Below, one piece after another: positions 10,217 to 27,774 of a DNA stretch of 64,000 bases (positions within the stretch are counted from its first letter, which is position 1; each line of letters begins with the position of its first letter). The position numbers were made by a program, and so were the translations under genes. The stretch comes from Joostella atrarenae. GTDB taxonomy: Bacteria; Bacteroidota; Bacteroidia; Flavobacteriales; Flavobacteriaceae. The stretch is from positions 186,001 through 250,000 of the forward strand of contig NZ_JAETXX010000001.1 in the NCBI RefSeq assembly GCF_021764745.1, written 5' to 3'. The notes under the pieces were generated by a model. It was not told where the DNA came from. It saw only the letters and a program-made list of their open reading frames with translations, and made no database searches.

Positions 10217-10278
10217 ATTTCTTATATTTAACCCGAAATTATCATTAACACCCTTGTAAAAATAAACAAGATATAGCC

Positions 10279-11274
10279 ATGCAAAGAAGAAATTTTCTAA
10301 AAAAGACAGGATTAGGAGCCACAGGAATTCTATCGATTCCATTTTTAGCCTCTTGGACAGAGGAAGATATTAAAGTGAATCCTAAAACGATAGCTACACC
10401 AATGACTCCAATTGCAATCTGCACCTGGAATTTTGAAAATGCTACCGCAAAAGCATGGGAAGTTTTAAGTAATGGAGGAACTGCTTTGGATGCTGTAGAG
10501 CAAGGGGTAATGATTGAAGAAGCTGATGAAACCAATCAAACTGTTGGAAAAGGAGGACGCCCAGATAGAGATGGAAACGTAACTCTTGATGCGTGTATTA
10601 TGGATAAAGATGGAAACTGCGGTTCTGTTGTGTATTTACAAAATATAACACATGCTGTTTCTGTTGCCAGAAAAGTAATGGAAGATACTCCACATGTAAT
10701 TTTAGCAGGAAAAGGAGCTGAGCAATTTGCGTATGAAAAAGGCTTTAAGAAAGAGAATATCTTAACAGAAAAATCAAAAAGAGATTGGTTAAAATGGAAA
10801 GAGAAATCTCAATATGAAACTATTATAAACATAGAGAATCACGACACGATAGGAATGCTAACCATCGATAAAAATGGTGATATTGCTGGCGCTTGTACTA
10901 CAAGTGGAATGGCTTATAAAGTTGGCGGAAGAGTTGGAGATTCTCCTATTGTTGGAGCTGGACTTTTTATAGATAATGAAGTTGGTGGCGCTACGGCAAC
11001 TGGTGTCGGGGAAGAGGTTGTAAGAACTGTTGGTTCTTTTCTAATTGTTGAATTAATGAGACAAGGAAAATCACCTCAAGAAGCATGTGAAGAAGCTGTA
11101 AAAAGAATCATCGCTAAAAATAAAGATCATGATTCTTTCCAAGTAGGCTTTTTAGCTATCAATAAAAAAGGAGAAACTGGAGCATATTGTATTCATCCAG
11201 GGTTTAGTTTCAGAAAATATACCGAAGAAGGGCATACCAATAATCCTGCTGGATCATACGTAAAAGGAGAATAA
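10279..11274 (+). CDS. N4-(beta-N-acetylglucosaminyl)-L-asparaginase, Tat-exported
   Basis: A 331-residue Ntn-hydrolase of the glycosylasparaginase family. The autoproteolysis site is HDTIGML, with Thr190 as the nucleophile created by cleavage after the Asp. Other conserved segments are GGTALDAVE, SVVYLQNITHAVSVARKVM and GRVGDSPIVGAGL. The N-terminus QRRNFLKKTG followed by a hydrophobic stretch is a Tat signal, so the enzyme folds in the cytoplasm and acts in the periplasm. It removes N-glycans from asparagine after protein degradation, suggesting use of glycoproteins. Neighbouring polA is probably transcribed separately. Confidence 0.9.
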   Translation: MQRRNFLKKTGLGATGILSIPFLASWTEEDIKVNPKTIATPMTPIAICTWNFENATAKAWEVLSNGGTALDAVEQGVMIEEADETNQTVGKGGRPDRDGNVTLDACIMDKDGNCGSVVYLQNITHAVSVARKVMEDTPHVILAGKGAEQFAYEKGFKKENILTEKSKRDWLKWKEKSQYETIINIENHDTIGMLTIDKNGDIAGACTTSGMAYKVGGRVGDSPIVGAGLFIDNEVGGATATGVGEEVVRTVGSFLIVELMRQGKSPQEACEEAVKRIIAKNKDHDSFQVGFLAINKKGETGAYCIHPGFSFRKYTEEGHTNNPAGSYVKGE

Positions 11275-11394
11275 AGAATACATCAAAAAAAGTAAAAAAT
11301 CAATTTAAAGAAATAGAGTTAAAAGAAACGGACAAGCACCTTCTCTTCTTAAATCTTTATAACTTTACACATTATATAATTTATCATAGAAAAC

Positions 11395-14223
11395 ATGGCA
11401 GACCAAAAAAGGTTATTTCTTTTAGACGCATACGCATTAATTTTTAGAGGCTATTATGCATTTATAAAAAACCCAAGAATTAACTCTAAAGGAATGGACA
11501 CCTCTGCGGTTCTAGGATTTATGAATTCTCTTTTAGATGTTATAAAAAGAGAGCAGCCAGATCATTTGGCGGTAGCGTTTGATAAAGGAGGAAGCAAGGA
11601 TCGTGTGGAAATGTTCGAAGAATATAAAGCCAATCGTGATGAAACTCCAGAAGCCATCCGCATTGCTGTACCTATTATTCAAGACATCTTAAAGGCAATG
11701 CATATTCCGTGCATTGTAAAAGACGGTTTTGAAGCTGATGATATTATTGGAACACTAGCCAAACAAGCAGAAAAGGAGAACTATAAAGTGTATATGGTTA
11801 CTCCAGATAAAGATTTTGCTCAATTGGTTTCTGAGAACATATTTATGTATCGCCCAGCAAGAATGGGGAACGGTATAGAAATATTAGGAATTCCTGAAGT
11901 ACAAAAAAAATTCGAAGTAGAAACTCCTGAGCAGGTAATAGATTTCTTAGGAATGATGGGAGATGCTGCGGATAATATTCCTGGACTTCCGGGAGTTGGA
12001 GAAAAAACAGCTAAGAAATTTTTAAAAGAATTTGGAAGCATGGAAAACCTTTTAGCAAACACCGATAAGCTAAAAGGGAAAATGAAAGAGAAAGTAGAAG
12101 CAAATAGAGAGCTGGGATTACTATCTAAAGAACTCGCTCGAATTATGCTCGATGTTCCTGTTCAGTTTCATGAAGACGACTACAAACTCGACACTCCAGA
12201 TATCGATAAAGTACAAGAAATTTTCCAAGAGTTAGAATTTAGAAGACTAGCAGATAGTATTTCTAAAATCTTCGGAAAAGAAGTTGCTATAGAAGAATCT
12301 AAAAACGCAGACAATAAAGCTAAAGTCAACGATGGCTTAGAAGTTCAATATGACCTTTTTGGAAGTAATGAAAAAGCAGACAACTCAACTACTGGGCATG
12401 TTACTGGCTATAAAACGATAACAGATGTACCGCATTTTTATCAGCATGCTAATACTGCTCTTGCTAGAAAATTATTAATCAAAAACTTACTTCAGCAAAA
12501 AAGCGTTTGTTTTGACACCGAAACTACAAGCTTAAAATCTTTGGAAGCTGAATTAGTAGGTTGCGCATTTTCATGGAAACCAGGAACAGGATTTTATGTT
12601 TCTTTTCCAGAAAATCAAGAAGAGTCAAAAGCCATTTTAGAAGAATTCCGTCCATTTTTTGAAAATAAAGAAATTGAAAAAATTGGTCAGAATTTAAAGT
12701 ACGACATAAAAGTGCTCTCCAATTATAACATGCCTGTTGAAGGCCCTATTTTTGACACTATGATTGCGCATTATCTTATAAACCCAGATATGCGTCATAA
12801 TATGGATATTTTAGCAGAGACTTATTTAAACTATAGTCCTGTTTCTATTGAAACTCTAATTGGAAAAAAAGGTAAAAACCAACGTTCCATGAGAAGCGTT
12901 GCTTTAGAAGAACAAACAGAGTATGCTGTTGAAGATGCTGATATTACCCTTCAGCTAAAAAACATTTTTGAAAAAGAACTACCAAATCTAAATGCTAAAA
13001 AGCTATTCGATGAAATTGAAGCGCCACTTGTAAAAGTATTAGCAGAAATGGAAATAGAAGGTATTAATTTAGATGAAGAGTTTTTATTCTCTCTTACAAA
13101 AGATCTGAATAGTGATATTCTAAGATTAGAAGGTGCTATTTTCGAACAAGCAGGAGAAGAGTTCAATCTAGCATCTCCAAAACAACTTGGCCTTATTTTA
13201 TTTGATAAATTAAAGTTGGTAGACAAACCTAAAAAAACTAAAACTGGACAATATTCTACTGCAGAGGATGTGCTTTCTTATCTAGCAAAAGATCATCAAA
13301 TTATAAACGATATTTTAGAGTGGCGACAATTAAATAAATTAAAAAGCACCTATGTAGATGCGCTGCCAAATGAGATCAATTCCAAAACGAAGCGTATTCA
13401 TACTGTTTACAGTCAGGCAGTAGCCGCAACAGGAAGACTAAGCTCTAACAACCCTAATCTTCAAAATATCCCGATAAGAACTGAAAGAGGTCGCCAAGTA
13501 AGAAAGGCGTTTGTTCCAAGAGATAAAAACTACACATTGCTAGCAGCCGATTATTCGCAAATAGAACTTCGTATTATTGCTGCTCTAAGTGAAGAAGATA
13601 CAATGATAAAGGCTTTTCAAGATGGCGTGGATATCCACACCTCTACCGCCGCAAAAGTATTTAATGTTCCTCTCGAAGAAGTAACCCGTGAGCAACGTAG
13701 TAATGCTAAAACGGTAAACTTTGGTATAATATATGGTGTTTCCGCTTTTGGTTTAAGTAATCAAACTACATTAAGTAGAAGTGAAGCCAAAGAATTAATA
13801 GACACCTACTATGAAACATACCCAAAACTAAAGGCATATATGAGCAAACAAGTTCATTTTGCACAAGACAATGGCTATGTGGAAACTGTTCTTGGTAGAA
13901 GGAGGTATTTAAAAGATATTAATTCTAGAAATCAAGTGGTTCGTGGGGCTGCAGAGAGAAATGCTGTAAACGCACCTATTCAGGGTAGTGCAGCAGATAT
14001 CATAAAGATTGCAATGATTAATATCCAGAAAAAGCTTAAGGACGGTAACTTCAAAACAAAAATGCTTCTTCAGGTACATGATGAACTAGTTTTCGATGCT
14101 TACAATGAAGAACTCGACACTATAAAAACTATGATTAAGACCGAAATGGAAAGCGCCTACAAGCTAAATGTACCTTTAGATGTTGAAATAGGACTAGGAA
14201 AAGACTGGCTTGAAGCGCATTAG
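11395..14223 (+). CDS. polA: DNA polymerase I
   Basis: A 942-residue, full-length, three-domain PolA. The 5'-3' exonuclease domain (about 1-290) has DGFEADDIIGTLA and the helix-hairpin-helix GLPGVGEKTAKKFL. The 3'-5' exonuclease domain retains its motifs (FDTETTSL, GQNLKYD, EYAVEDAD), so proofreading should be active. The polymerase domain has motif A DYSQIELR, motif B RSNAKTVNFGIIYG and motif C QVHDELVFD. It fills gaps in repair and replaces RNA primers. The last ~320 bases are duplicated as a broken copy at 19521-19838. A terminator lies about 150 bases downstream. Confidence 0.97.
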   Translation: MADQKRLFLLDAYALIFRGYYAFIKNPRINSKGMDTSAVLGFMNSLLDVIKREQPDHLAVAFDKGGSKDRVEMFEEYKANRDETPEAIRIAVPIIQDILKAMHIPCIVKDGFEADDIIGTLAKQAEKENYKVYMVTPDKDFAQLVSENIFMYRPARMGNGIEILGIPEVQKKFEVETPEQVIDFLGMMGDAADNIPGLPGVGEKTAKKFLKEFGSMENLLANTDKLKGKMKEKVEANRELGLLSKELARIMLDVPVQFHEDDYKLDTPDIDKVQEIFQELEFRRLADSISKIFGKEVAIEESKNADNKAKVNDGLEVQYDLFGSNEKADNSTTGHVTGYKTITDVPHFYQHANTALARKLLIKNLLQQKSVCFDTETTSLKSLEAELVGCAFSWKPGTGFYVSFPENQEESKAILEEFRPFFENKEIEKIGQNLKYDIKVLSNYNMPVEGPIFDTMIAHYLINPDMRHNMDILAETYLNYSPVSIETLIGKKGKNQRSMRSVALEEQTEYAVEDADITLQLKNIFEKELPNLNAKKLFDEIEAPLVKVLAEMEIEGINLDEEFLFSLTKDLNSDILRLEGAIFEQAGEEFNLASPKQLGLILFDKLKLVDKPKKTKTGQYSTAEDVLSYLAKDHQIINDILEWRQLNKLKSTYVDALPNEINSKTKRIHTVYSQAVAATGRLSSNNPNLQNIPIRTERGRQVRKAFVPRDKNYTLLAADYSQIELRIIAALSEEDTMIKAFQDGVDIHTSTAAKVFNVPLEEVTREQRSNAKTVNFGIIYGVSAFGLSNQTTLSRSEAKELIDTYYETYPKLKAYMSKQVHFAQDNGYVETVLGRRRYLKDINSRNQVVRGAAERNAVNAPIQGSAADIIKIAMINIQKKLKDGNFKTKMLLQVHDELVFDAYNEELDTIKTMIKTEMESAYKLNVPLDVEIGLGKDWLEAH

Positions 14224-14648
14224 AAATTAACAAAATATACTTACAATCTAATACTTAAAAATCTTCAGACAAAGTAGGAGTTGATTAAAATAGTACGCTA
14301 CCGTATTATAAGATAGACCCGGTGTATGATCGATAAAGTGATTACATTAAAAATTAACTTAAGCAGATCAAAAGCTCCCGAATATACTCGGGAGCTTTTT
14401 TTTACAAAAAACATTCTGTAAACTACTTTAGTACTTTACAAACAATAACTAGTTATCATAAAATCAATGGAATTTTAAATCTGAAAAATCAAAAATAAAT
14501 ATTCATTTTAATAACTCTACAAATAGCTATTCTATATGGTATGATAAAAATATAAATGCATAATTTTTCCTACGCATAATTAAAGATTTCATATTGCATT
14601 TAACATTAATTTTCGCTTTATTTAACAAAATTTTAAAGCTAATCAAAA
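14224..14648. other. Intergenic region polA-susC, 425 bases
   Basis: It contains the polA terminator (14371-14403) and otherwise AT-rich DNA. No ORF, tRNA or clear TAnnTTTG promoter is visible. The last ~25 bases (TTTAACAAAATT..AAAGCTAAT) recur before the second susC at 19916-19935. The rest of this spacer is missing from the second copy. Confidence 0.6.
14371..14403 (+). terminator. Intrinsic terminator downstream of polA
   Basis: Stem AAAGCTCCCGA / TCGGGAGCTTT with a short AT loop, followed by eight T residues. Confidence 0.88.
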
Positions 14649-17600
14649 ATGAATGTAAAATTTAAATGGATTTTAACACTCTTGTGCCTTTTAACGATGC
14701 AAATATCGCTAGCACAAGAGAAAACAGTCTCAGGTACTGTTGTTTCAAAAACAGATGGCTTCCCTTTACCAGGAGCAAACATTGTTGTTAAAGGAACCAC
14801 AAACGGCGTACAAACAGATTTTGATGGAAATTACAGCATCTCCACCAAAGCAGGAGAAACAATCTCTTTTTCTTACATAGGGTACAAAACTACTGATGTA
14901 AAAATTGGTAATTCTAACACTATTAACGTCTCATTAGAAGAAGATGCCCAATCATTAGACGAAGTAATAGTTGTTGCCTATGGTACATCAAAGAAAGAAG
15001 ACTTTACAGGTTCTGCAACACAAATTAATGCAGAGCAACTAGAAAGTAGAGTTATCACAAATGCTGTTAATGCCTTAGATGGTGCTGCCGCTGGTGTTAA
15101 TGTTTCAGCACCTAGTGGTCAACCAGGAGCTAGCCCTAATATTAGAATTAGAGGAACAGGTTCCTTTAGCGCATCTAACTCTCCTCTATACATAGTAGAT
15201 GGAGTTCAATTTAACGGAGAACTTTCTAGTATCAACCCTAATGATATCGAAAGTATGACTGTACTTAAAGATGCAGCTTCAACATCTCTTTACGGAAGTA
15301 GAGCTGCAAACGGAGTAGTTCTAATTACTACTAAAAAAGGAAAACAAGGAAAGAGCAAAGTTTCTTTGAATGTAAGTCAGGGGCTTACTTCAAGATCTAT
15401 ACCAGAATATGATCGTGTAAATGCTCAACAATATTACCCTTTGCTATGGGAAGCATATAGAAATGGACTTTCCATCTCTGGAAACACTCCTGTAGCGGAT
15501 GCTAATACTGAAGCTTCTGCTGAAATATACAATGAGTTAGGATACAATCCTTTTAATGTAGCTAATAATCAAATCGTCTTAACTAATGGGCAATTGAATC
15601 CAGACGCTCAACTAAAAATTGATCCAAAGGATTTAAATTGGCAAGATCAACTTATTAGAACTGGAGTTAGACAAAACATAGATTTCTCATACCAAGGAGC
15701 TAACGAAAACACTGATTATTATGCTTCTATTGGATACTTAAATGAAGAAGGGTACATAGTAAACTCTGATTTCGAAAGAGTTTCTGCTAGAATTAATGTG
15801 AACTCAAAATTAAAAAAATGGTTTAAAACAGGAATAAACCTATCTGGAACTAGTTCAATTTCAAACCAAGCTGCAGATGCAAGTAGTACAGGATATGTAA
15901 ATCCTTTTTACACCACACGTGCTATTGCTCCAATATATCCAGTTCATCAACATGATTTAACTACAGGCGCTTATATCTTAGATGATAATGGAGATAGAAT
16001 TTACGACATTGGAGACTACCGAGTTGGAGGTGGTGGTAGCGGAAGAAACGTTATACAGGAAACAATGCTTAATGTAGATCAAGATAAAATATTTTCTTTT
16101 TCTGGTCGTACCTATGCTGAATTCTATTTTTTACAAGACTTCACCTTCACAGTTAACGCTGCCTTAGATAAAAGATTTTACTATAACGAAGAATTTGACA
16201 ACCCTATAGTTGGAGATGGAGCACCAGATGGTAGAGCTGGAAGAACTTCCACAATGCGTAGTACCCAAAACTACAATCAATTATTAAGATATGATAGAGA
16301 TTTTGGAAAACATAGCGTCTCTGCCCTTTTAGGACATGAAAGCTTTGAAACTGAATATAATTATTTAGATGGTTTCAGACAAGAACAAATTGTTGAAGGT
16401 AACACAGAACTTATAAACTTTACAACCACTAACAATTTAGAATCTTATACAAGTAGACAAACTACGGAAGGTTATTTCTCAAGATTAAATTATGATTTTG
16501 ATAATCGTTACTATATCTCTGGATCATTTAGAAGGGACGGTTCTTCTCGTTTTGACCAAGATGCTAGATGGGGTAATTTCTTCTCTGTTGGAGGAGCATG
16601 GAGATTGGATCAAGAAGCATTTATAAAAGGAGTAGACTGGATCAATCTGTTAAAATTAAGAGCTTCTTATGGTCAAGTAGGTAATGATGACTTAGGTGGA
16701 TATTATGTAAGTCAATCGTTATTTGATTTAGGGTACAACAATGGACCTGAAGGTGGGATTTTAGTTAGCTCACCAGGGAACCCTTTCTTAAAATGGGAAA
16801 CTAATATTCAAACAGACTACGCTTTAGAATTTGGTCTTTTCCAAAACAGAGTAGCAGGTACTGTTGAATATTACCAACGTAAATCTGAAGATTTATTATT
16901 TGATGTTCCTCTTCCTGTTTCTTCAGGTTTAGACGATTATCCAGATAACATTGGTAGCTGGACTAATAAAGGTATTGAAATAGAGTTAAATTTTGGAATA
17001 GTAAGAAATGAAAATTTCACTTGGGATTTAGGAATCAATGCTTCTACACTTAAAAACGAAATCAATGAGCTTTCTCAGGAAGAAATCATAAATGGATCAA
17101 AAAAACTAGTTGTTGGTGGAGATATTTATGATTATTGGTTAAGAGATTGGTATGGAGTAGATCCAGCTGACGGATCGGCATTATATATTGTAGATCCTGA
17201 ATTAATTGAAGAAAATGACGATGATGTTAGAACTATCGATGGTACACTTGTTACTACTAACCAAAACAAAGCTCTTTATGACTTTGTAGGGTCTGCAACT
17301 CCAGATGTATTCGGATCTATAAGAAACAGCTTTACTCTTAAAGGTTTTGAACTTGGATTTATGTTTACATACCAGCTTGGAGGTGAAACTTACGATTCCA
17401 ATTATGCAAACTTAATGAGTTCTGGAGAATATGGGTCATCATTAAGTACAGACATATTAGATCGTTGGCAACAACCTGGAGACATTACCAATGTTCCTAG
17501 ACTAGACGCTACTAAAACAGCTGTTTTTGGAGCTGGTTCTAGCAGATGGTTAACAAGCTCAGATTACCTATCTCTAAGACAAGTAAACTTAGGTTATAAT

Positions 17601-17783
17601 TTTGACAGTCATTTACTTGATGCTTTAGGATTAGGAAGTCTTAAAATATATGCTTCTGGTGAGAACTTATTTAAACTTACTGATAGAAGTGGTATGGATG
17701 TAGGAGAAAACTTTAGTGGTACTACTAGCAACAGGTTCACACCTGCTAGAGTAATATCATTAGGACTAAACGTAACTTTTTAA
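14649..17783 (+). CDS. SusC/RagA-family TonB-dependent outer-membrane transporter, copy 1
   Basis: A 1044-residue SusC-type receptor. A Sec signal peptide ends at ISLAQ. A carboxypeptidase-regulatory-like beta-sandwich follows (about residues 25-100: GTVVSKTDGFPLPGANIVV, TDFDGNYSI). Then come the TonB-box-like LDEVIVVAYG, the plug domain with SPLYIVDGVQF and TVLKDAASTSLYGSRAANGV, and a large beta-barrel ending in a C-terminal Phe. It pairs with the SusD lipoprotein 9 bases downstream to import oligosaccharides or peptides too large for porins. No glycoside hydrolase is linked, so the substrate is unknown. It is closely similar along its whole length to the second copy at 19941. Confidence 0.95.
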   Translation: MNVKFKWILTLLCLLTMQISLAQEKTVSGTVVSKTDGFPLPGANIVVKGTTNGVQTDFDGNYSISTKAGETISFSYIGYKTTDVKIGNSNTINVSLEEDAQSLDEVIVVAYGTSKKEDFTGSATQINAEQLESRVITNAVNALDGAAAGVNVSAPSGQPGASPNIRIRGTGSFSASNSPLYIVDGVQFNGELSSINPNDIESMTVLKDAASTSLYGSRAANGVVLITTKKGKQGKSKVSLNVSQGLTSRSIPEYDRVNAQQYYPLLWEAYRNGLSISGNTPVADANTEASAEIYNELGYNPFNVANNQIVLTNGQLNPDAQLKIDPKDLNWQDQLIRTGVRQNIDFSYQGANENTDYYASIGYLNEEGYIVNSDFERVSARINVNSKLKKWFKTGINLSGTSSISNQAADASSTGYVNPFYTTRAIAPIYPVHQHDLTTGAYILDDNGDRIYDIGDYRVGGGGSGRNVIQETMLNVDQDKIFSFSGRTYAEFYFLQDFTFTVNAALDKRFYYNEEFDNPIVGDGAPDGRAGRTSTMRSTQNYNQLLRYDRDFGKHSVSALLGHESFETEYNYLDGFRQEQIVEGNTELINFTTTNNLESYTSRQTTEGYFSRLNYDFDNRYYISGSFRRDGSSRFDQDARWGNFFSVGGAWRLDQEAFIKGVDWINLLKLRASYGQVGNDDLGGYYVSQSLFDLGYNNGPEGGILVSSPGNPFLKWETNIQTDYALEFGLFQNRVAGTVEYYQRKSEDLLFDVPLPVSSGLDDYPDNIGSWTNKGIEIELNFGIVRNENFTWDLGINASTLKNEINELSQEEIINGSKKLVVGGDIYDYWLRDWYGVDPADGSALYIVDPELIEENDDDVRTIDGTLVTTNQNKALYDFVGSATPDVFGSIRNSFTLKGFELGFMFTYQLGGETYDSNYANLMSSGEYGSSLSTDILDRWQQPGDITNVPRLDATKTAVFGAGSSRWLTSSDYLSLRQVNLGYNFDSHLLDALGLGSLKIYASGENLFKLTDRSGMDVGENFSGTTSNRFTPARVISLGLNVTF

Positions 17784-17792
17784 ATTGTAATC

Positions 17793-19286
17793 ATGAAAAG
17801 AATATTAAAAAATAAAATACTAATAGGCTTAGCCATTTTAAACCTTGGCCTTTTTTCCTGTAGTGACGACTTTTTAGACGAAGTCCCTACAGAAAGTGTA
17901 TCAGATCAATCTGCAACTACAACAACTGGAAATTTATTCTTAGTAATTAACGGAATTCATAGGTCTTTATATATAAGATACGGATCCCAAGGGAGAAGCG
18001 GTATTGGATCTCTAATGATTCAAAATGATGTACTAGGAGAGGATTTTGTAATGACATCTAGAGGAAACGGTTGGTTCGTTAGCGCATCAGCATGGAATGA
18101 CCATACAAATGCTAATGATAGTGATGATCTATTTCCATATAGAACTTATTATAGAATCATTAGAAATGCCAATGTTGTGATTAATGGAGCTGAAAATGCA
18201 GAAGGACCAGAAGCAGAAAGAAATGCAGCTCTTGGACAAGCATACTTTTATAGAGCATGGGCACATTTCCAAACAGTACAACTATTTGGAAAAAGATATG
18301 ACGGCACTACAACTAACTCCCAATTAGGAGTTCCTATTAGACTTACAGCAGACAATGAGCCATTAGCTAGAAATACTGTTGAAGAAGTATATGCACAAGT
18401 TCATGAGGACTTGAACCAAGCAATCTCACTATTAGACGGTTATTCAAGAACAAACAAATCCCACTTAGATAAGTCAGTAGCTCTTGGACTTAAAGCAAGA
18501 GTTGCTTTAGTTCAACAAGATTATACAACCGCTGCTAATTATGCTAAACAAGCAAGAAGCGGGTACAGTCTTATGTCTAGAGACGATTACTATGCTAATT
18601 TTAATGATTATGGTAATGGAGAATGGATGTGGGGAAGTCACATTCAGGAAGATCAAACAGATTATTTTGGAAACTTCGGAGCATATGTTTCTAGAAACTA
18701 CAGCTCTACTAACATCAGAACAAATCCAAAAGCTATTAATAATCTGCTATACGATAAAATAGCTCCAACAGATATTAGAGCTAAAATATTTGATCCTACA
18801 GGGGAGCATGATAGCCTTCCTCCAGGATATGAAATCGGATCTAATTTCAGCAAAGAACCTTATACAAGTCAGAAATTCCTTGCTGTGGGAGCAGGAGACA
18901 GTAGAATGGACGTTCCATACATGAGAGCTGCAGAAATGTATCTAATTGAGGCAGAGGCTCTTTCATACTCTAATGAAAGTGAAGCAAAACAAGTTCTTTT
19001 TAAGCTAGCTTCAAATAGAGATCCCAATTATACACTTTCTACAAATTCAGGAGATACTCTAAAAGAAGAGATTTACGTACAGCGAAGAGTAGAATTATGG
19101 GGTGAAGGGTTTAGATTTTACGATTTAAAACGTTTAAATCAACCTTTAGACAGAACAGGTGCTAATCATGTTGGAAGCGTTATCAATAACGTATATGAGG
19201 TGCCTGCTGGAGATAATAGATGGCAATGGCTTATCCCACAGGATGCACTTAATGCTAACCCATTATTAGAACAAAATCCTATATAA
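17793..19286 (+). CDS. SusD/RagB-family substrate-binding lipoprotein, copy 1
   Basis: A 497-residue surface lipoprotein with lipobox LGLFSC followed by acidic residues (SDDFLDEVPTES), a pattern associated with surface export in Bacteroidota. The SusD helical repeats are visible: YRIIRNANVVINGA, ALGQAYFYRAWAHFQTVQLFG, RAAEMYLIEAEAL and VQRRVELWGEGFRFYDLKRL near the C-terminus. It forms the lid of the SusC transporter and binds the ligand. It is co-transcribed with susC (9-base gap) and followed by a strong terminator. The last ~96 bases across the stop codon are identical in DNA to copy 2. Confidence 0.95.
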   Translation: MKRILKNKILIGLAILNLGLFSCSDDFLDEVPTESVSDQSATTTTGNLFLVINGIHRSLYIRYGSQGRSGIGSLMIQNDVLGEDFVMTSRGNGWFVSASAWNDHTNANDSDDLFPYRTYYRIIRNANVVINGAENAEGPEAERNAALGQAYFYRAWAHFQTVQLFGKRYDGTTTNSQLGVPIRLTADNEPLARNTVEEVYAQVHEDLNQAISLLDGYSRTNKSHLDKSVALGLKARVALVQQDYTTAANYAKQARSGYSLMSRDDYYANFNDYGNGEWMWGSHIQEDQTDYFGNFGAYVSRNYSSTNIRTNPKAINNLLYDKIAPTDIRAKIFDPTGEHDSLPPGYEIGSNFSKEPYTSQKFLAVGAGDSRMDVPYMRAAEMYLIEAEALSYSNESEAKQVLFKLASNRDPNYTLSTNSGDTLKEEIYVQRRVELWGEGFRFYDLKRLNQPLDRTGANHVGSVINNVYEVPAGDNRWQWLIPQDALNANPLLEQNPI

Positions 19287-19316
19287 AGTAATAACATAGA
19301 TATCTTTATAAAACCA

Positions 19317-19353
19317 ACAAGCTCGTTATTCTAATAAATAACGAGCTTGTTTT
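19317..19353 (+). terminator. Terminator after susCD copy 1
   Basis: Perfect 14-bp stem ACAAGCTCGTTATT / AATAACGAGCTTGT with a six-base loop, ending in TTTT. The same element follows the second susCD pair at 24603. Confidence 0.85.
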
Positions 19354-19455
19354 GTATTATAGTAAGTCTCTTAGAGCTATAAATAAATACCTCTCTTTAT
19401 ATTTTTACTCCCTATTTATTAAAGGAGTAATAATATTCAGATTAGACAGAAAAAT

Positions 19456-19530
19456 CAAACTCTTATTGAATTCCCGAATAAATATAGTGATACATCTATT
19501 AATGAACATGCAACGCTATTGTATTTAAAA
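19456..19530 (+). pseudogene. Remnant of the 3' part of a DUF547 gene
   Basis: These 75 bases match 25459-25533 in the intact DUF547 gene, including the codons for TLIEFLNKYSDTTINEHATL, with a few substitutions. The match starts abruptly after sequence that corresponds to the spacer downstream of susD copy 2 (up to about 24743). It ends at GTATTTAAAA, where polA sequence takes over. It is a non-functional scar of a tandem duplication followed by a deletion. Confidence 0.85.
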
Positions 19531-19838
19531 GTTATTAATTCTAGAAATCAAGTGATTGGTGGAGTTGCAGAGAGAAATGTTGTAAACGCAACTATTCAGG
19601 GTAGTGCAGCAGATATCATAAAGATTGCAATGATTAATATTCAGAAAAACTTAAGGACGATAACTTCAAAATCAAAAGGCTTCTTCAGGTACATGATGAA
19701 CTAGTTTTCGATGCTTACAATGAAGAACTCGACACTATAAAAACTATGATTAAGACCGAAATGGAAAGCGCCTACAAGCTAAATGTACCTTTAAATGTTG
19801 AAATAGGACTAGGAAAAAACTGGCTTGAAGCGAATTAG
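19521..19838 (+). pseudogene. Truncated, frameshifted copy of the polA 3' end
   Basis: This matches polA 13905-14223 almost base for base, from INSRNQVVRGAAERNAV through motif C to the stop codon (TAG at 19836-19838). One base is lost relative to polA near 19650 (AAAAAGCTT has become AAAAACTT), shifting the frame, and several substitutions change residues. It lacks the rest of the gene and cannot make a polymerase. An open reading frame of about 60 codons at 19519-19704 is only the part of this remnant before and just past the frameshift. It marks the junction of the tandem duplication. Confidence 0.92.
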
Positions 19839-19940
19839 AAATTAATCTATGTTAAATAGCATTTAATTTATTTTAAGTAGAAATATTTCTATTTATTGGC
19901 TTTTTTTTGTTTTCTTTAACAAAATTAAAAGCTAATTAAA

Positions 19941-22900
19941 ATGGAGTTAAAAATTAAATGGATCTTAACACTCTTGTGCATAGCTGTCACACAATTTGCA
20001 CTATCCCAAGAGAAAACAATAACAGGTACTGTTGTTTCTGCAGCAGATGGTTTCCCATTACCAGGGGCTAACATTGTTGTTTTAGGTACCACTAACGGGG
20101 TTCAAACAGATTTTGATGGAAAATTCAGCCTTAACACTAAAGTAGGGGAAACTATAACCATATCGTATATTGGTTTTAAATCAATCGATGTAAAAATTAG
20201 CGGTGCTAATAATATAAACATTTCCCTACAAGAGGATGCTCATTCTTTAGACGAAGTAATTGTTGTTGCTTACGGTACTACTAAAAAAGAGGATTTTACT
20301 GGTTCAGCTACACAAATCAATTCCGAACAACTAGAAACTAGAGTTATTACCAATGCTATAAATGCTTTAGATGGAGCATCTGCAGGGGTTAATGTTTCTG
20401 CCCCAAGCGGGCAGCCTGGTTCAACTCCTAATATTAGAATTAGAGGTACAGGATCTTTTAACGCTTCTAGCTCACCACTTTATATAGTAGATGGAGTACA
20501 ATTTACTGGTGAACTTTCTAGCATAAACTCAAATGATATAGAAAGTATGACAGTACTTAAGGACGCTGCATCAACTTCTCTTTACGGGAGTAGAGCAGGG
20601 AATGGAGTCGTCTTAATTTCTACGAAAAAAGGAAAACAAGGGAAAAGCAAAGTATCTCTAAATGTTAGTCAAGGTATTACTACTAGATCTATAGAAGAAT
20701 ATGACCGTGTAAATGCTCAACAATATTACCCACTTATGTGGGAGGCTTATAGAAATGGCCTTTCTATCTCAGGCAATACTCCTACTGAAGAAGCAAACAT
20801 GCAAGCTTCTTCAGAAATTTTCGAAAGGTTAGGATACAATCCTTTCAATGTAGCTAATGATCAAATAGTTTTAACAAATGGACAACTAAACCCAGATGCA
20901 CAGTTAAAAATTGATCCACAAGATTTAGATTGGCAATCACCCCTTATCAGAACGGGAGCAAGACAAAACGTAGATTTCTCATATCAAGGAGCAAATGAAA
21001 ATACTGATTATTATGCTTCTCTAGGATATTTAAATGAGGAAGGATATCTAGCTAATTCTGATTACGAAAGGGTATCTGCTAGAATAAACGTAAATTCAAA
21101 ACTAAAGGAATGGGTAAAAGCGGGTTTAAATTTGTCTGGAGCGAGTTCCATATCAAATCAAGCTGCAGACGGGAATAGTACAGGGTTATCCAACCCATTT
21201 TTTGTTACCCGACGCATGAGTCCTATATATCCAGTTCATCTACACGACGTAGATACTGGCAATTATATTTTAGATGATGAAGGGCAAAGAATTTATGATT
21301 CGGGTGAATATAGAATCGGAAGTTCTAATGGAAGAAATATTGTTCAAGAAACAGAATTAAATGTTGATAGAGACAAAATATTTTCATTTTCAGGTCGAAC
21401 TTATGCTGAGTTTTACTTCTTAAAAGACTTTACATTTACACTTAATGCTTCCTTAGACAAAAGGTTTTATCACAACGAAGAATTCGACAATCCAATTGTT
21501 GGAGATGGTGCACCAGACGGTAGAGCGGGAAGAACTTCGACAACACGTAGTACTCAAAACTACAACCAATTATTAAGGTATGATAAAGAATTCGGCAAAC
21601 ACTCTATCTCTGCTCTTCTAGGGCATGAAAACTTTGAAACTGAATATAATTATTTGGATGGGACAAGACGAGAAGAAATTATTGAAGGAAACACAGAACT
21701 TGTGAATTTCACAAACATAACCGACTTAGAGTCTTATACAAATAGACAAACTACTGAAGGTTATTTCTCGAGAGTTAACTACGATTTTGATAACCGTTAT
21801 TATATATCTGGATCTTTTAGAAGAGACGGATCTTCTAGATTCCATGAAAACACTTGGGGTAATTTCTATTCTGTTGGTGGAGCATGGAGAATAGACCAAG
21901 AGGCTTTTATTAAACAGATAGATTGGATAAACTTATTAAAGTTAAGAGCATCATATGGTGAAGTTGGGAACGATGATTTGGGCGGATATTATGTAAGCCA
22001 GGCACTATTTGACTTAGGCTTTAACAATGCTACCGAGGGAGGAATATTGTTAGAGTCTGCAGGAAATCCCAATTTAAAATGGGAAACGAATGTCCAAACT
22101 GATTACGCACTTGAATTTGGTTTCCTTCAGAATAGAATAACTGGTACATTAGAGTATTACAGACGTAAATCTCAAGACATTCTTTTTGAAGTTCCACTTC
22201 CAATTTCCTCAGGTCTTGATGATTATCCTGCTAATATCGGAAGCTGGACAAATAAGGGAATAGAAATTGAACTTCAACTCGGAATTGTAAGAAATCAAAA
22301 TTTCAGTTGGGATTTAGGAATTAATGCATCTACACTCGACAATGAAATTAATGAACTACCCCAAGAAGAGATAATTGATGGTTCTAAAAAATTAGTTGTT
22401 GGAGGAGATATTTACGATTATTGGTTAAGAGATTGGTATGGTGTAGATCCATCCGATGGTGCAGCATTATATATTGCTGATCCTGAATTGATAGAAGAAA
22501 ATGATGATGAAATTAGAACTATTGACGGTACTAATGTTACTACAAATCAAAGTAAAGCGTTATATGACTTTGTAGGATCTGCTACTCCTGACTTATTTGG
22601 TTCAATCAGAAACAACTTTAGATACCATGGAATAGAGCTTGGCTTTATGTTCACATATCAACTTGGAGGTGAAACTTATGATAGAAATTACTCAGGAATA
22701 ATGCATTCAGGAACATATGGTACAGCACTGAGTACAGATATATTAAACCGCTGGCAACAACCGGGGGACATTACTGATGTACCTAGATTAGATACAACAA
22801 AAACAACTGCTTTTGGAGCAGGGTCAAGCAGATGGTTAACAAGCTCAGACTATCTTGCGCTAAGACAAGTAAGCTTATCTTATAATTTTGATAGCTCTCT

Positions 22901-23069
22901 TATTGACGCACTTGGTCTCGGCAGCCTTAAAATATATGCATCAGGAGAAAATTTATTTAAAATAACTGATAGAAAAGGTATGGATGTAGGAGAGAACTTT
23001 AATGGTACTACTAGCAATAGATTTACACCTGCTAGAGTAATATCATTAGGATTAAACGTAACTTTTTAA
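19941..23069 (+). CDS. SusC/RagA-family TonB-dependent outer-membrane transporter, copy 2
   Basis: A 1042-residue paralogue of the upstream SusC, collinear over its whole length. It has a signal peptide ending at FALSQ, then a regulatory beta-sandwich (GTVVSAADGFPLPGANIVV), TonB box LDEVIVVAYG, plug (SPLYIVDGVQF, SLYGSRAGNGVVL) and barrel with terminal Phe. Differences from copy 1 are scattered. Some fall in probable outer loops and plug-facing segments (for example around the RMSPIYPVHLHDVDTGN region), so ligand range may have diverged. The intergenic spacer before it is about 320 bases shorter than that before copy 1. Forms an operon with the SusD gene 9 bases downstream. Confidence 0.95.
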   Translation: MELKIKWILTLLCIAVTQFALSQEKTITGTVVSAADGFPLPGANIVVLGTTNGVQTDFDGKFSLNTKVGETITISYIGFKSIDVKISGANNINISLQEDAHSLDEVIVVAYGTTKKEDFTGSATQINSEQLETRVITNAINALDGASAGVNVSAPSGQPGSTPNIRIRGTGSFNASSSPLYIVDGVQFTGELSSINSNDIESMTVLKDAASTSLYGSRAGNGVVLISTKKGKQGKSKVSLNVSQGITTRSIEEYDRVNAQQYYPLMWEAYRNGLSISGNTPTEEANMQASSEIFERLGYNPFNVANDQIVLTNGQLNPDAQLKIDPQDLDWQSPLIRTGARQNVDFSYQGANENTDYYASLGYLNEEGYLANSDYERVSARINVNSKLKEWVKAGLNLSGASSISNQAADGNSTGLSNPFFVTRRMSPIYPVHLHDVDTGNYILDDEGQRIYDSGEYRIGSSNGRNIVQETELNVDRDKIFSFSGRTYAEFYFLKDFTFTLNASLDKRFYHNEEFDNPIVGDGAPDGRAGRTSTTRSTQNYNQLLRYDKEFGKHSISALLGHENFETEYNYLDGTRREEIIEGNTELVNFTNITDLESYTNRQTTEGYFSRVNYDFDNRYYISGSFRRDGSSRFHENTWGNFYSVGGAWRIDQEAFIKQIDWINLLKLRASYGEVGNDDLGGYYVSQALFDLGFNNATEGGILLESAGNPNLKWETNVQTDYALEFGFLQNRITGTLEYYRRKSQDILFEVPLPISSGLDDYPANIGSWTNKGIEIELQLGIVRNQNFSWDLGINASTLDNEINELPQEEIIDGSKKLVVGGDIYDYWLRDWYGVDPSDGAALYIADPELIEENDDEIRTIDGTNVTTNQSKALYDFVGSATPDLFGSIRNNFRYHGIELGFMFTYQLGGETYDRNYSGIMHSGTYGTALSTDILNRWQQPGDITDVPRLDTTKTTAFGAGSSRWLTSSDYLALRQVSLSYNFDSSLIDALGLGSLKIYASGENLFKITDRKGMDVGENFNGTTSNRFTPARVISLGLNVTF

Positions 23070-23078
23070 ATCGTAATC

Positions 23079-24575
23079 ATGAAAAAAATACTTATAAATA
23101 AAATACTAATCGTCTTAGTTATTTTAAATTTCAGTCTGTTTTCATGTAGTGATGACTTCTTAGAAGAAGTTCCTACAGAAAGCATATCAGAACAAGCAGT
23201 TGCAACAACAACTGGTAATCTATTTTTAGTAATTAACGGAATTCACAGGTCTCTTTACATAAGATATGATTCTAATGGTAGGGCTGGAGCAGGATCTCTT
23301 ATGATTCAAAATGATGCGCTAGGTGAAGATTTTGTGATGACAGGAGAAGCTAATAAATTTTTCATCCAAATGGCAGGATGGTCAGATCACACGGATGCTA
23401 GTGACAGTTATGACTTATATCCATATAGATTCTATTATAGAATTATTAGAAATGCTAATGTAGTGATAAATGGCGTTGGTAATGCTGAAGGTCCAGAAAT
23501 TGAAAAAAACACTGTTTTAGGAGAAGCTCTTATTTACAGAGCATGGTCTCATTTCCAATTAGTACAATTATATGGAGAAAGATATGACGCTTCTAGTGAA
23601 AACACCCAATTAGGTGTACCTATAAGACTTACCACAGATAACAATCCTATAACTAGAAATACTGTGAAAGAAGTTTACACACAAATTCATACAGATTTAG
23701 ATCAAGCTATTAAAGTATTGGAAGATTACTCAAGGGCAAATAAATCTCACCTAGATAAATCCATAGCACTTGGCATTAAAGCAAGAGTAGCACTAGTACA
23801 ACAAGATTACACCACTGCTGCAAGCTATGCAAACCAGGCAAGAAGTGGATATAGTCTTATGTCTAGAGACGATTATTACGCTAATTTTAATAATTATGAA
23901 AATATTGAATGGATGTGGGGAAGTCATATTCAAGAAGATCAAGTAGGAACTTTTAGCACTTTTGGAGCCTATGTATCTAGAAACTTTAGCTCATCAAACA
24001 TTAGAGGAAATCCTAAAGCAATTAACAATCTACTTTACGACAAAATAACTTCAACAGATATAAGATCAAAACTTTTTGATCCTACAGGACAGCATGACAG
24101 TCTACCTCCAGGACATGAGGAATTGAGTTCTAGGTTCAGCAAAAAGCCATATACTAGTCAGAAGTTTTTAACAGAGAGTACCGGAAGCAGTAAAATGGAT
24201 GTACCTTACATGAGAGCTGCAGAAATGTATCTTATTGAAGCGGAAGCACTTTCATATTCTAATGAAAGTCAAGCCAAGCAAGTTCTTTTTGAATTAGCTT
24301 CAAATAGGGATCCTAACTATACACTTTCTACAAACTCTGGAAGTGCATTAAAAGAAGAAATATATATTCAACGCCGAGTTGAATTATGGGGTGAAGGTTT
24401 CAGGTTTTATGACTTAAAACGGCTAAATATCCCTTTAGATAGAATAGGCACTAATCATACTGGAGAACTTATAAATTATGTTTATGAAGTACCTGCTGGA
24501 GATAATAGATGGCAATGGCTTATCCCACAGGATGCACTTAATGCTAACCCATTATTAGAACAAAATCCTATATAA
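23079..24575 (+). CDS. SusD/RagB-family substrate-binding lipoprotein, copy 2
   Basis: A 498-residue lipoprotein paralogous to the first SusD. Lipobox FSLFSC is followed by SDDFLEEVPTES. SusD signatures are YRIIRNANVVINGV, LIYRAWSHFQLVQLYG and QRRVELWGEGFRFYDLKRL. The region around residues 80-100, which carries candidate ligand-contact positions, differs clearly from copy 1 (EANKFFIQMAGWSDHTDAS against RGNGWFVSASAWNDHTNAN). The C-terminal ~80 bases of coding DNA are identical to copy 1, including silent sites. It acts with the preceding SusC; substrate unknown. Confidence 0.95.
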   Translation: MKKILINKILIVLVILNFSLFSCSDDFLEEVPTESISEQAVATTTGNLFLVINGIHRSLYIRYDSNGRAGAGSLMIQNDALGEDFVMTGEANKFFIQMAGWSDHTDASDSYDLYPYRFYYRIIRNANVVINGVGNAEGPEIEKNTVLGEALIYRAWSHFQLVQLYGERYDASSENTQLGVPIRLTTDNNPITRNTVKEVYTQIHTDLDQAIKVLEDYSRANKSHLDKSIALGIKARVALVQQDYTTAASYANQARSGYSLMSRDDYYANFNNYENIEWMWGSHIQEDQVGTFSTFGAYVSRNFSSSNIRGNPKAINNLLYDKITSTDIRSKLFDPTGQHDSLPPGHEELSSRFSKKPYTSQKFLTESTGSSKMDVPYMRAAEMYLIEAEALSYSNESQAKQVLFELASNRDPNYTLSTNSGSALKEEIYIQRRVELWGEGFRFYDLKRLNIPLDRIGTNHTGELINYVYEVPAGDNRWQWLIPQDALNANPLLEQNPI

Positions 24576-24602
24576 AGTAATAACATAAAAACTTTATAAA
24601 AT

Positions 24603-24637
24603 AAGCTCGTTATTCTAATAAATAACGAGCTTGTTTT
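24603..24637 (+). terminator. Terminator after susCD copy 2
   Basis: Stem AAGCTCGTTATT / AATAACGAGCTT with loop CTAATA and TTTT. It is the duplicate of the element at 19317. The remaining spacer to 24846 is AT-rich, with nothing else recognisable. Confidence 0.85.
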
Positions 24638-24846
24638 GCATTATAGTAAGTCTCTTAGAGCTATAAATAAAAGCCTTCCTTTATATTTTTACTTCCTATT
24701 TATTTAAGTAGTAATAATATTCAGATTAGACAGAAAAATCAAAAATGATGAAAGTGTTTCCTTAAGCCAATTATGTAATACATTTGTTATAAATGCTAGG
24801 TACTTTAGTTAATTATTAACGAAGATTACTCTTAAACCATAAAAAT

Positions 24847-25560
24847 ATGAAATACAAACTAATCATATTTCTATCAATTACCATTACTGTTTTTTCTATT
24901 GAAAAAAGTTATACTCAAGAGTTAGATCATGAAATTTGGAATCAACTACTTAAAAAATATGTATCTGAAAATGGAACTGTAACGTACAGTAATTTTGATG
25001 AAGATTTATTAAATACGTATTTGAAAGAATTAGAAACCAATCAGCCAAATGATTCATGGAGTAAAAATAAAGTATTATCCTATTGGATCAATGCATACAA
25101 TGCATTTACAATAAAACTTATATTGAAAAACTTTCCACTTAATAGTATTAAAGACATAAAAGACCCTTGGAATCAGAAGTTCATTCCCTTAAAAGATGAA
25201 CAACTAATATCTTTAAACGATATCGAACATAGGATTTTAAGAAAAATGAATGAACCTAGAATACATTTTGGGATAAATTGCGCCTCTATCTCATGTCCAA
25301 AACTATTAAACGAAGCATTTACAAGCAAAAATGTAGATCTACAGCTTAATAAAGCAAGTCTTGATTTTATTAATGATAAATCAAAAAATAATATTTCTAC
25401 ATACAGAATTGTAGTTTCTCCTATTTTTGATTGGTTCAAAGAGGATTTTACAAAAAACCAAACTCTTATTGAATTCCTGAATAAATATAGCGATACAACT
25501 ATTAATGAACATGCAACACTATCGTATTTAAAATACAACTGGAATATAAACGGCAAATAA
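24847..25560 (+). CDS. DUF547 domain protein, exported
   Basis: A 237-residue protein with an N-terminal signal peptide (cleavage near SYTQ) and a DUF547 domain, recognised by SYWINAYNAFTIKLIL, HFGINCASISCPKLLNEAF (two conserved Cys) and SPIFDWFKEDF. The family's biochemical role is unknown; it is frequent in marine bacteria and has a cysteine-containing core. A 75-base remnant of a second copy is found upstream at 19456-19530, showing this gene's 3' end was the right boundary of a duplication. No operon partner downstream. Confidence 0.88.
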   Translation: MKYKLIIFLSITITVFSIEKSYTQELDHEIWNQLLKKYVSENGTVTYSNFDEDLLNTYLKELETNQPNDSWSKNKVLSYWINAYNAFTIKLILKNFPLNSIKDIKDPWNQKFIPLKDEQLISLNDIEHRILRKMNEPRIHFGINCASISCPKLLNEAFTSKNVDLQLNKASLDFINDKSKNNISTYRIVVSPIFDWFKEDFTKNQTLIEFLNKYSDTTINEHATLSYLKYNWNINGK

Positions 25561-25734
25561 TTAGAAGCTTTACCAAAAATAGAGTTGAAATTTAGATTTT
25601 CAACTCTGTTTTACATTATATGAAACTATAAATTGCGGTTCTATTCAAAATTGTTAATTTGCAGCTTCTTACCGTGTTGTTTTAACTTACTAAAAACCAA
25701 ACGGTTCAAAACAACAAATAATTAACACCCCCTA

Positions 25735-25765
25735 TTTGTATATAACATAAATAGTTGTACTTTTG
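25735..25765 (+). promoter_or_regulatory. Promoter of the rplM-rpsI operon
   Basis: TTTG (25735-25738), exactly 19 bases, then TACTTTTG (25758-25765). This is a full match to the Bacteroidota housekeeping promoter. Expected transcription start is about 25769-25772, at the base of the leader hairpin. Confidence 0.88.
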
Positions 25766-25768
25766 CAC

Positions 25769-25800
25769 CCCATTATCCCGAATTCACGTTTGGGTATGGG
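25769..25800 (+). promoter_or_regulatory. Structured 5' leader of rplM (candidate uL13 autoregulatory element)
   Basis: The predicted mRNA begins with a two-tier hairpin. The outer stem is CCCAT (25769-25773) with ATGGG (25796-25800). The inner stem is CCCGAA (25777-25782) with TTTGGG (25789-25794), loop TTCACG, and a small internal loop separates them. A hairpin at the extreme 5' end of a ribosomal-protein mRNA is typical of autoregulatory leaders, and such leaders are described in Bacteroidota. That uL13 binds this one is inferred. Confidence 0.6.
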
Positions 25801-25832
25801 AATGGAATGTTTAATTTTTTAAAAAATTTAGT

Positions 25833-26288
25833 GTGGATACATTAAGCTACAAAACAATTTCAGCAAACAAGGCTACTGTTAACAAACAGTGGGTTTTAGT
25901 TGATGCTGATGGTCAGACGCTAGGACGTCTTTCTTCTAAAGTGGCAAAGCTACTTAGAGGTAAGTATAAGCCTAATTACACACCGCATGTTGACTGTGGA
26001 GATAATGTAGTTATTATCAATGCAGAGAAAATCAACTTGACGGGTAAAAAATGGGATGCAAAAGAATACGTGCGTCACACAGGTTACCCAGGTGGTCAAA
26101 GAACAACAACAGCTACGGAACTTTACAAAAAAGATCCTACACGTTTGTTGGAAAAATCTATTAAAGGAATGCTTCCTAAAAACAAATTAGGCGCAGAGCT
26201 ATTCCGTAATTTAAAAGTGTACGTTGGTGCAGAGCACGCTCAAGAAGCTCAAAAACCAACTGCTATTAACTTAAACGATCTTAAATAA
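25833..26288 (+). CDS. rplM: Large ribosomal subunit protein uL13
   Basis: A 151-residue L13 with the conserved segments WVLVDADGQTLGRLSSKVAKLLRGK, NAEKINLTGKKW, HTGYPGG and LPKNKLGAELFRNLKVY. The start is GTG at 25833 (MDTLSYKT), the normal N-terminus in this group; no alternative ATG is in frame nearby. It assembles early into the large subunit. The stop overlaps the rpsI start by one base (TAATG), so the two are translationally coupled. It is driven by a strong promoter with a structured leader. Confidence 0.97.
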   Translation: MDTLSYKTISANKATVNKQWVLVDADGQTLGRLSSKVAKLLRGKYKPNYTPHVDCGDNVVIINAEKINLTGKKWDAKEYVRHTGYPGGQRTTTATELYKKDPTRLLEKSIKGMLPKNKLGAELFRNLKVYVGAEHAQEAQKPTAINLNDLK

Positions 26289-26674
26289 TGGAAGTAATTC
26301 ACAAAATCGGCAGAAGAAAAACTGCAGTTGCAAGAGTTTACGTTTCTGAAGGTGAAGGTAAAATCACCATCAACAAAAAAGAATTTGCACAATACTTCCC
26401 AACGCCAACTTTACAGTACAAAGTTAAGCAGCCTCTAACATTAACAGAGAATGTTGAAAACTTTGACATTAAAGTAAATGTTTTTGGTGGTGGAGTAACA
26501 GGACAAGCTGAGGCTATCCGTCTTGCAATTTCTAGAGCTATGTGTGAAATCGATGCAGAGCATAGATTAACTCTTAAACCAGAAGGATTACTTACAAGAG
26601 ATCCAAGAATGGTAGAGCGTAAGAAATTCGGTCAGAAGAAAGCACGTAAGAAATTCCAGTTCTCTAAACGTTAA
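26288..26674 (+). CDS. rpsI: Small ribosomal subunit protein uS9
   Basis: A 128-residue S9 with IGRRKTAVARVYV at the N-terminus, the GGGVTGQAEAIRLAISRA core and the C-terminal basic tail KKARKKFQFSKR, whose last Arg contacts P-site tRNA in known ribosomes. It is coupled to rplM by a one-base overlap. A 208-base leader-containing gap separates it from rpsB. The small hairpin ATGTGT / ACACAT just after the stop is too weak to call a terminator. Confidence 0.97.
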   Translation: MEVIHKIGRRKTAVARVYVSEGEGKITINKKEFAQYFPTPTLQYKVKQPLTLTENVENFDIKVNVFGGGVTGQAEAIRLAISRAMCEIDAEHRLTLKPEGLLTRDPRMVERKKFGQKKARKKFQFSKR

Positions 26675-26736
26675 TCTGTATCAGATTTTTTACATGTGTT
26701 TTATACACATTGTTCATTTATTATTGAATTTAAAAC

Positions 26737-26781
26737 ATGTCGTTGCTTCGTTTCTTGAAAAAGAAAAGGAGAGCAGTTTAG
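26737..26781 (+). CDS. Possible 14-codon leader peptide ORF before rpsB
   Basis: ATG at 26737 opens a frame encoding MSLLRFLKKKRRAV and stopping at TAG 26779-26781. It is strongly basic, and its stop codon lies inside the 5' arm of the rpsB leader hairpin. Ribosomes finishing here would disrupt that hairpin, as in leader-peptide attenuation. It may equally be a chance ORF within the leader. No ribosome-binding sequence is evident, as is usual in this phylum. Confidence 0.35.
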   Translation: MSLLRFLKKKRRAV

Positions 26782-26857: not shown

Positions 26858-26882
26858 CAACGGAAAGTAAACTATTACAAAA

Positions 26883-27680: not shown

Positions 27681-27692
27681 ATAACAATATAA

Positions 27693-27753: not shown

Positions 27754-27774
27754 CTAATTAAAACTGATATAGAA

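What the first reader, a model, noticed from the sequence alone, without database searches (positions are those of the whole stretch)
13905..25533. Readable tandem duplication of a ~6.3 kb polA-tail/susC/susD/DUF547 unit
The order polA, susC-susD, scar, susC-susD, DUF547 is what results if the segment from inside polA (13905) to inside DUF547 (25533) was duplicated head to tail. The scar contains DUF547 3' sequence joined to polA 3' sequence, which are the right and left ends of the unit. Both susCD pairs then stayed open and diverged, while the redundant gene ends decayed. It is a clear case of SusCD family expansion with its boundaries still visible.
Basis: seen in the sequence. Interest (0 to 1): 0.8.

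Follow-up and report, generated by a model that had tools for sequence, protein, structure and literature searches.

The report
Mismatched tandem pair of nutrient importers
A bacterium carries two neighbouring copies of a nutrient-importer gene pair inside a recent tandem duplication, but the two pairs differ far more than the duplication's own scars, so one pair was most likely swapped in from a related bacterium and did not diverge in place.

Summary
A unit of polA tail, susC-susD and DUF547 tail is repeated head to tail. Between the two susCD pairs lies a scar: spacer, 81 nt from near the DUF547 end, then the last ~320 nt of polA, joined at a 10-bp microhomology. The proposed timing is wrong. 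The useless scar pieces are 93-96% identical to their parents. The two open susCD pairs are only ~78% identical in DNA, with synonymous divergence above 1, about that between species of this genus. Changes in the polA remnant sit mostly at codon positions 1 and 2, with a frameshift, so it decayed after the duplication, which is recent. Identity shifts abruptly at the polA stop and 84 nt before the susD stop. Best reading: a recent tandem duplication in which one ~5-kb susCD block is a divergent allele brought in by recombination, during or after the duplication. Both pairs look functional (dN/dS ~0.1). No donor or single-copy carrier was found. RagAB allele exchange in Porphyromonas is the closest known case. 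A well-dated instance of a known process, not a new kind of system.

The parts
11395..14223 (+). polA, intact; the left end of the repeated unit lies at 13905 inside it
   Evidence: Pfam DNA_pol_A and exonuclease domains; repeats D8/D6
13905..14230 (+). left end of unit, copy 1: polA 3' end (functional)
   Evidence: 94% and 96% to 19521-19845, profile
14231..14648 (+). spacer upstream of susC copy A; not alike to the 95-nt spacer upstream of copy B except near the start codon
   Evidence: alignment profile and sequences
14649..17783 (+). susC copy A (1044 aa)
   Evidence: TIGR04056 801.9 bits, TIGR04057; Pfam plug and CarbopepD_reg_2
17793..19286 (+). susD copy A (497 aa, lipobox-like LFSC)
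   Evidence: Pfam SusD_RagB and SusD-like_3; N-terminus
19202..19298 (+). right-hand breakpoint: last mismatch at 19202 (24491 in copy B), then 84 identical nt to the susD stop and 12 more beyond
19287..19459 (+). scar, part 1: spacer with a terminator-like inverted repeat, homologous to the stretch downstream of susD copy B
   Evidence: 94% over 144 nt; 11 substitutions in 158 aligned sites
19450..19530 (+). scar, part 2: 81 nt homologous to 25453-25533 near the end of DUF547; 719 nt between part 1 and this part are missing
   Evidence: 93%; 6 of 81 differ
19521..19530 (+). duplication joint: 10-bp microhomology GTATTTAAAA shared by polA (13905) and DUF547 (25524)
19521..19845 (+). scar, part 3: polA 3' remnant with a frameshift; substitutions mostly at codon positions 1 and 2
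19941..23069 (+). susC copy B (1042 aa, 82% identical to A)
   Evidence: TIGR04056 790.8 bits
23079..24575 (+). susD copy B (498 aa, 78% identical to A, lipobox-like LFSC)
24847..25560 (+). DUF547 gene, intact; right end of unit at 25533
   Evidence: PF04784, E 1e-24
25833..26674 (+). rplM-rpsI, right border of the variable polA-rplM interval
   Evidence: Ribosomal_L13, Ribosomal_S9; rpsI follows polA in the 6 other genomes of the genus

Best explanation
This is a recent head-to-tail duplication of a polA-tail/susCD/DUF547-tail unit, sealed at a 10-bp microhomology, in which the two susCD blocks are not copies of one another from that event. One block, running from just after the polA stop codon to 84 nt before the susD stop, is a divergent allele of the same importer. 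It entered by recombination, either because the two units came from two strains of the species with near-identical polA but different susCD alleles, or because one block of a plain duplication was later replaced. The scar pieces had no function and decayed neutrally. Both pairs stayed under purifying selection as two related TonB-dependent 'pedal-bin' outer-membrane importers. Shown: anatomy, joint, age mismatch, breakpoints, low dN/dS. Inferred: import, the donor's identity, which pair is resident, and different substrates for A and B.
For: Age of duplication: the polA remnant differs from polA at 15 of about 316 sites plus 1 indel. Of the 15, 11 map to the scar branch, all at codon positions 1 or 2; 3 map to polA's own branch and 1 is ambiguous. 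The codon-position ratio (1+2: 3) is 12:3, against 12:51 for the same stretch of polA between this genome and its relative G003, Fisher p = 1.6e-5. So the remnant was essentially this strain's polA when the joint formed. The spacer (11 of 158) and the DUF547 tail (6 of 81) give similar figures. Age of susCD: NG86 dS 1.40 and dN 0.11 for susC, dS 1.11 and dN 0.14 for susD. Fourfold divergence is 163/337 and 62/133, close to the median 0.51 (taken by hand) of the 26 syntenic gene pairs between this genome and G003 that passed the filters. Breakpoints are sharp on both sides. A and B are sisters with support 100 in an 81-row SusC tree and an 81-row SusD tree, so they are alleles, orthologues or paralogues of one lineage.
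Against: No donor and no single-copy carrier of either allele was found. None of the 6 other genomes of the genus has a SusD match at 1e-150. Of 397 family genomes, 8 including this one match at 1e-170, the best other at 69% (only 3 first-look candidates were scored per genome there). No second strain of the species was available. GC3 is alike in A and B (0.20-0.22), so composition does not mark a foreign block. The left breakpoint at the very end of polA carries no donor polA, which is a coincidence if the donor was another species. A supporting argument that I first saw in G005 versus G002 failed: their susCD divergence (0.65, 0.61) is at background (median about 0.59 of 20 other genes) and their polA is the outlier.
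Confidence: 0.68

Rival explanations
1. A and B are old tandem paralogues of this lineage. A recent larger duplication of polA-tail/A/B/DUF547, followed by two deletions by recombination between A and B sequences, left A, scar, B. No foreign DNA is needed.
For: A and B are sisters in both trees. The right breakpoint lies beside a stretch (WQWLIP) that is present in 20 of 81 SusD relatives checked, and in looser form (W.W.IP) in 43 of 81, where A-B recombination could occur.
Against: It needs three events against two. None of the 6 other genomes of the genus has either copy. No third full-length copy above 37% SusC identity was found in this genome (short partial matches reach 57%).
Confidence: 0.15
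2. An old tandem duplication whose non-functional ends were kept young by repeated gene conversion from the working polA and DUF547 regions, while susCD was too diverged to convert.
For: Conversion depends on similarity (general knowledge). G005 and G002 show polA divergence far below background (94/348 = 0.27) with a drop at the polA stop, so polA can be homogenised in this genus, though there between species.
Against: It needs conversion of three separate scar pieces to similar ages, covering the polA piece right up to the joint. The remnant has its own frameshift and 11 scar-branch changes spread over its length.
Confidence: 0.1
3. One reading: a recent duplication, after which both susCD pairs diverged in place by point mutation, perhaps by selection for new substrates.
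For: Collinear units and a readable joint. Copy B SusD has more unique changes than A against L011 (50 versus 19, p = 0.0002) and L012 (44 versus 18); 3 of 5 outgroups reach p < 0.05 for SusD and 1 of 5 for SusC.
Against: Synonymous sites differ about as much as between species: 163/337 fourfold sites (95% interval 0.43-0.54), while the decaying polA remnant shows 11/316 changes on its branch (95% interval 1.8-6.1%). Selection on proteins does not saturate synonymous sites, and the last 84 nt of susD are identical.
Confidence: 0.04

Closest known systems
ragAB allele exchange in Porphyromonas gingivalis / P. gulae (four rag types)
   Same: A SusCD-type importer with strongly diverged alleles described as horizontally exchanged: RagA about 58-69% and RagB about 47-57% identity of the other types to type 1, with the rag locus said to be transferred between strains and species independently of other virulence genes (PMC11817032, passages only; PMC5266723, passages only).
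   Different: In the table passage seen in PMC5266723 each strain is assigned one RagAB type. Here two divergent pairs stand side by side in one chromosome, joined by a dated duplication scar, in a different family of bacteria.
Plain tandem gene duplication by short-homology recombination (general knowledge)
   Same: Head-to-tail unit, 10-bp microhomology joint, truncated gene ends in the scar.
   Different: The contents of the two units are much older than the joint.
SusC/SusD family outer-membrane importers (solved relatives by sequence: SusC homologue 8aa4, RagA 6sli, SusC homologue 5t3r; SusD-like 3lew)
   Same: Both SusC copies reach TIGR04056 and TIGR04057; both SusD copies reach SusD_RagB and show a lipobox-like LFSC. 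Copy A matches these structures by sequence; copy B was not run.
   Different: The reading frames listed between polA and rplM that I identified are only the two susCD pairs and DUF547, so no enzyme hints at the substrate.

Membership tests
SusCD importer pair | SusC: SusC/RagA family TonB-linked receptor with signature and N-terminal CarbopepD_reg_2 domain | tested here: met
   TIGR04056 801.9 and 790.8 bits, cut-off 368; TIGR04057 above cut-off; PF13715, PF07715
SusCD importer pair | SusD: lipoprotein of the SusD/RagB family directly downstream of susC | tested here: met
   PF07980 and PF14322 above cut-off in both; LFSC seen in both N-termini by eye; 9-nt gaps to susC. NCBIfam's narrow model NF033071 (SusD of the starch system) is far below its cut-off
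SusCD importer pair | Transport of an oligomer across the outer membrane | not testable with these tools
   needs experiment
Simple tandem duplication with divergence in place | Collinear homologous units joined head to tail | tested here: met
Simple tandem duplication with divergence in place | All parts of the two units diverged for the same time | tested here: not met
   scar pieces about 5-7%; susCD fourfold 48% and 47%, dS above 1
Xenologous allele replacement (ragAB-like) | Gene block more diverged than its flanks, with sharp borders | tested here: met
Xenologous allele replacement (ragAB-like) | Donor lineage carrying the imported allele, or conspecific strains with alternative alleles | tested here: inconclusive
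   none in 7 genus genomes, 397 family genomes or 60 relatives, the last two with capped scoring; no second strain of the species was available

The most novel reading that the evidence does not exclude
The duplication and the allele import were one event: DNA from a conspecific strain carrying an alternative susCD allele was fused head to tail to the resident unit by microhomology at one end and by homology at the other. The bacterium thereby gained a second, already divergent importer in a single step ('instant neofunctionalisation').
Probability: 0.3. Interest if true: 0.5.

Novelty: new member of a known kind. Interest (0 to 1): 0.36.

Why it matters
This genome has 79 SusC-like matches, some weak and some pieces of one gene, and how such families grow is usually inferred from old paralogues without scars (general knowledge). 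Here a decaying polA fragment works as a clock. It shows that neighbouring paralogues joined by a visible duplication scar can be older than the duplication itself, so counting such a pair as a recent duplicate that diverged fast would be wrong.

Tried and rejected
1) I first took G005 versus G002 (same genus, another susCD at the same place) as a second case of susCD exchange, because their susCD is far more diverged than their polA. Control genes (23 pairs passing the filters of at least 40 fourfold sites and over 50% identity; pairs below these were dropped before the count) showed that susCD is at background and polA is the outlier. Rejected.

2) The first polarisation of the polA remnant used three relatives in the wrong orientation; it was repeated correctly and only that is used. 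The spacer interval was fed my miscount (12 of 159); one search gives 11 of 158.

3) The search for a donor or single-copy carrier was negative.

4) GC3 as a mark of the foreign copy: uninformative. A recalled Bacteroidota promoter motif was looked for upstream of both susC genes and in the scar: no hit.

5) Literature: no paper in the library holds the terms SusC, SusD, 'tandem duplication' and Flavobacteri together, nor SusC, SusD, 'lateral gene transfer', 'gene amplification' and Bacteroides together. 'Homology-facilitated illegitimate recombination' with 'microhomology' and 'duplication' gave one plant paper (listing only). Searches were read as listings only and not used. The library holds open-licence papers only.

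6) No structure was predicted: it would not decide between the histories.
Full report
ANATOMY. The repeat is real. In 10000-30000 the larger direct repeats fall into collinear series with spacings near 5290 (susCD and spacer) and 5616 (polA tail), plus one of 6003 (DUF547 tail). Copy 1 runs from 13905 to 19530 and copy 2 from 19521 to 25533. The joint is a 10-bp overlap present in polA and in DUF547, the only 10-mer shared by the stretches compared. The scar between the pairs consists of about 170 nt of spacer with an inverted repeat, 81 nt from near the end of DUF547, and 325 nt matching the end of polA. A further 719 nt (end of the spacer and most of DUF547) are missing from it. Searched against its own genome, the scar finds these three parents, itself, and two short inverted matches. 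A scar that differs by several percent from its parents is not expected from an assembly error (inference).

THE MISMATCH. The numbers run the other way. Per 100 aligned columns, the polA piece is 93-98% identical, the susD end with spacer is 93-98%, and the columns of susCD between are 65-87%, with one of 92% at the susC/susD joint. The change is abrupt: about 7 nt after the polA stop on the left, and at 19202/24491 on the right, after which 84 nt to the susD stop and 12 more are identical.

DATING THE JOINT. Against six relatives of the genus, 11 of the 15 substitutions between polA and its remnant lie on the remnant's branch, all at codon positions 1 or 2, and there is one single-base indel; 3 lie on polA's branch and 1 is ambiguous. 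Between this genome's polA and that of G003 the same stretch differs at 9, 3 and 51 sites in positions 1, 2 and 3. The contrast gives p = 1.6e-5. So the remnant was nearly identical to the resident polA when it lost its function and has since decayed by about 3.5% (95% interval 1.8-6.1%). The spacer (11 of 158 sites, two branches) and the DUF547 tail (6 of 81) agree.

DATING THE GENES. susC A/B: dN 0.11, dS 1.40; susD A/B: dN 0.14, dS 1.11. Fourfold sites: 163/337 and 62/133. For the 26 syntenic genes of this genome and G003 that passed the filters, the median fourfold divergence is about 0.51 (median taken by hand from its list). A and B are thus nearly as far apart as orthologues in two species of the genus. 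With a Jukes-Cantor correction susCD stands at 0.73-0.78 against 0.07 for the spacer, about tenfold. The low dN/dS says that both have been under purifying selection.

RELATIONSHIP. In SusC and SusD trees of 81 rows each, A and B are sisters with support 100, with the B branch longer (0.15 against 0.085; 0.20 against 0.074) (SusC tree by the quick method). Relative-rate tests favour faster change in B for SusD with 3 of 5 outgroups and for SusC with 1 of 5. This is suggestive only.

THE NEIGHBOURHOOD. polA and rplM-rpsI, followed by genes that I take for rpsB, tsf, pyrH and frr (names recalled, not searched), flank a variable interval. In the genus (7 genomes), G001, G003, G004 and G006 have no susCD or DUF547 there. 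G005 has polA, another susCD, a 296-aa gene, DUF547, rplM. G002 has polA, that other susCD, an LRR/Ig surface protein and a protein with a sub-threshold fn3 match. The susCD of G005 and G002 is far from A and B (SusC 43%, SusD 32-33%) and joins the trees on a very long branch, though in this genome its best SusD matches are still A and B (36%). In 18 intervals that I picked by eye from other genera of the family, one (G101) has a susCD. Of the cargo proteins run against Pfam, one each is an A2M protein, a DUF5916 protein, an LRR/Ig protein and an fn3 protein; 4 of the 18 intervals are about 1 kb or less. In Leeuwenhoekiella aequorea the closest named relative (SusD 72%) also lies between polA and rplM, but inverted. 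Other near relatives are not at this place: in G204 (SusD 68-69%) and G064 (59%) no polA, rplM or DUF547 lies within the 19.5 kb read, and of the 80 loci only L011 shows polA or rplM within the DNA held. The slot thus accepts changing cargo, which fits repeated gain and replacement, but does not prove it.

WHAT I WITHDREW. G005 and G002 first looked like a second example of susCD exchange. Control genes show that susCD there is as diverged as most other genes and that polA is unusually alike.

INTERPRETATION. A joint about 5% old with gene contents about ten times older is not what duplication followed by point mutation gives. The simplest history is one microhomology-sealed tandem duplication plus one recombinational import of a divergent allele bounded by the polA stop and the susD end. 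Whether these were two events, or one fusion of two strains' haplotypes, cannot be told without further strains. An all-internal history (old paralogues, larger duplication, two deletions) needs three events and remains possible; continual gene conversion of the ends is less likely. Allele exchange of a SusCD pair is described for ragAB of Porphyromonas (PMC11817032 and PMC5266723, passages only). What is particular here is that two such alleles sit in one chromosome with a clock between them.

FUNCTION. Both pairs have the domains, signals and spacing of working SusCD importers. The substrate is unknown. That A and B take up related but not identical substrates is an inference from 18-22% protein difference kept under selection.

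Noticed in passing
L109:3089-5911 versus L112 (polA of G005 and G002, same genus): Their polA differs at only 94/348 fourfold sites (0.27) against a background near 0.59, and similarity falls at the polA stop: polA itself seems to have been exchanged or homogenised between these species. Three ribosomal-protein genes (0.17-0.22) are low too, as is usual for such genes.
   Followed up: partly
window 14224-25832 (polA-rplM interval): Across Flavobacteriaceae this interval between two core gene blocks carries changing cargo: SusCD, LRR/Ig surface protein, alpha-2-macroglobulin, DUF5916 proteins, or nothing.
   Followed up: partly
L011:6830-11485: In Leeuwenhoekiella aequorea the closest named SusCD relative lies in the same polA-rplM interval but in the opposite orientation.
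   Followed up: no
G000:C1:348306-351323 (-), locus L005: A SusC-like gene (35% identical to copy A) with one in-frame TGA in the matched stretch, possibly a pseudogene.
   Followed up: no
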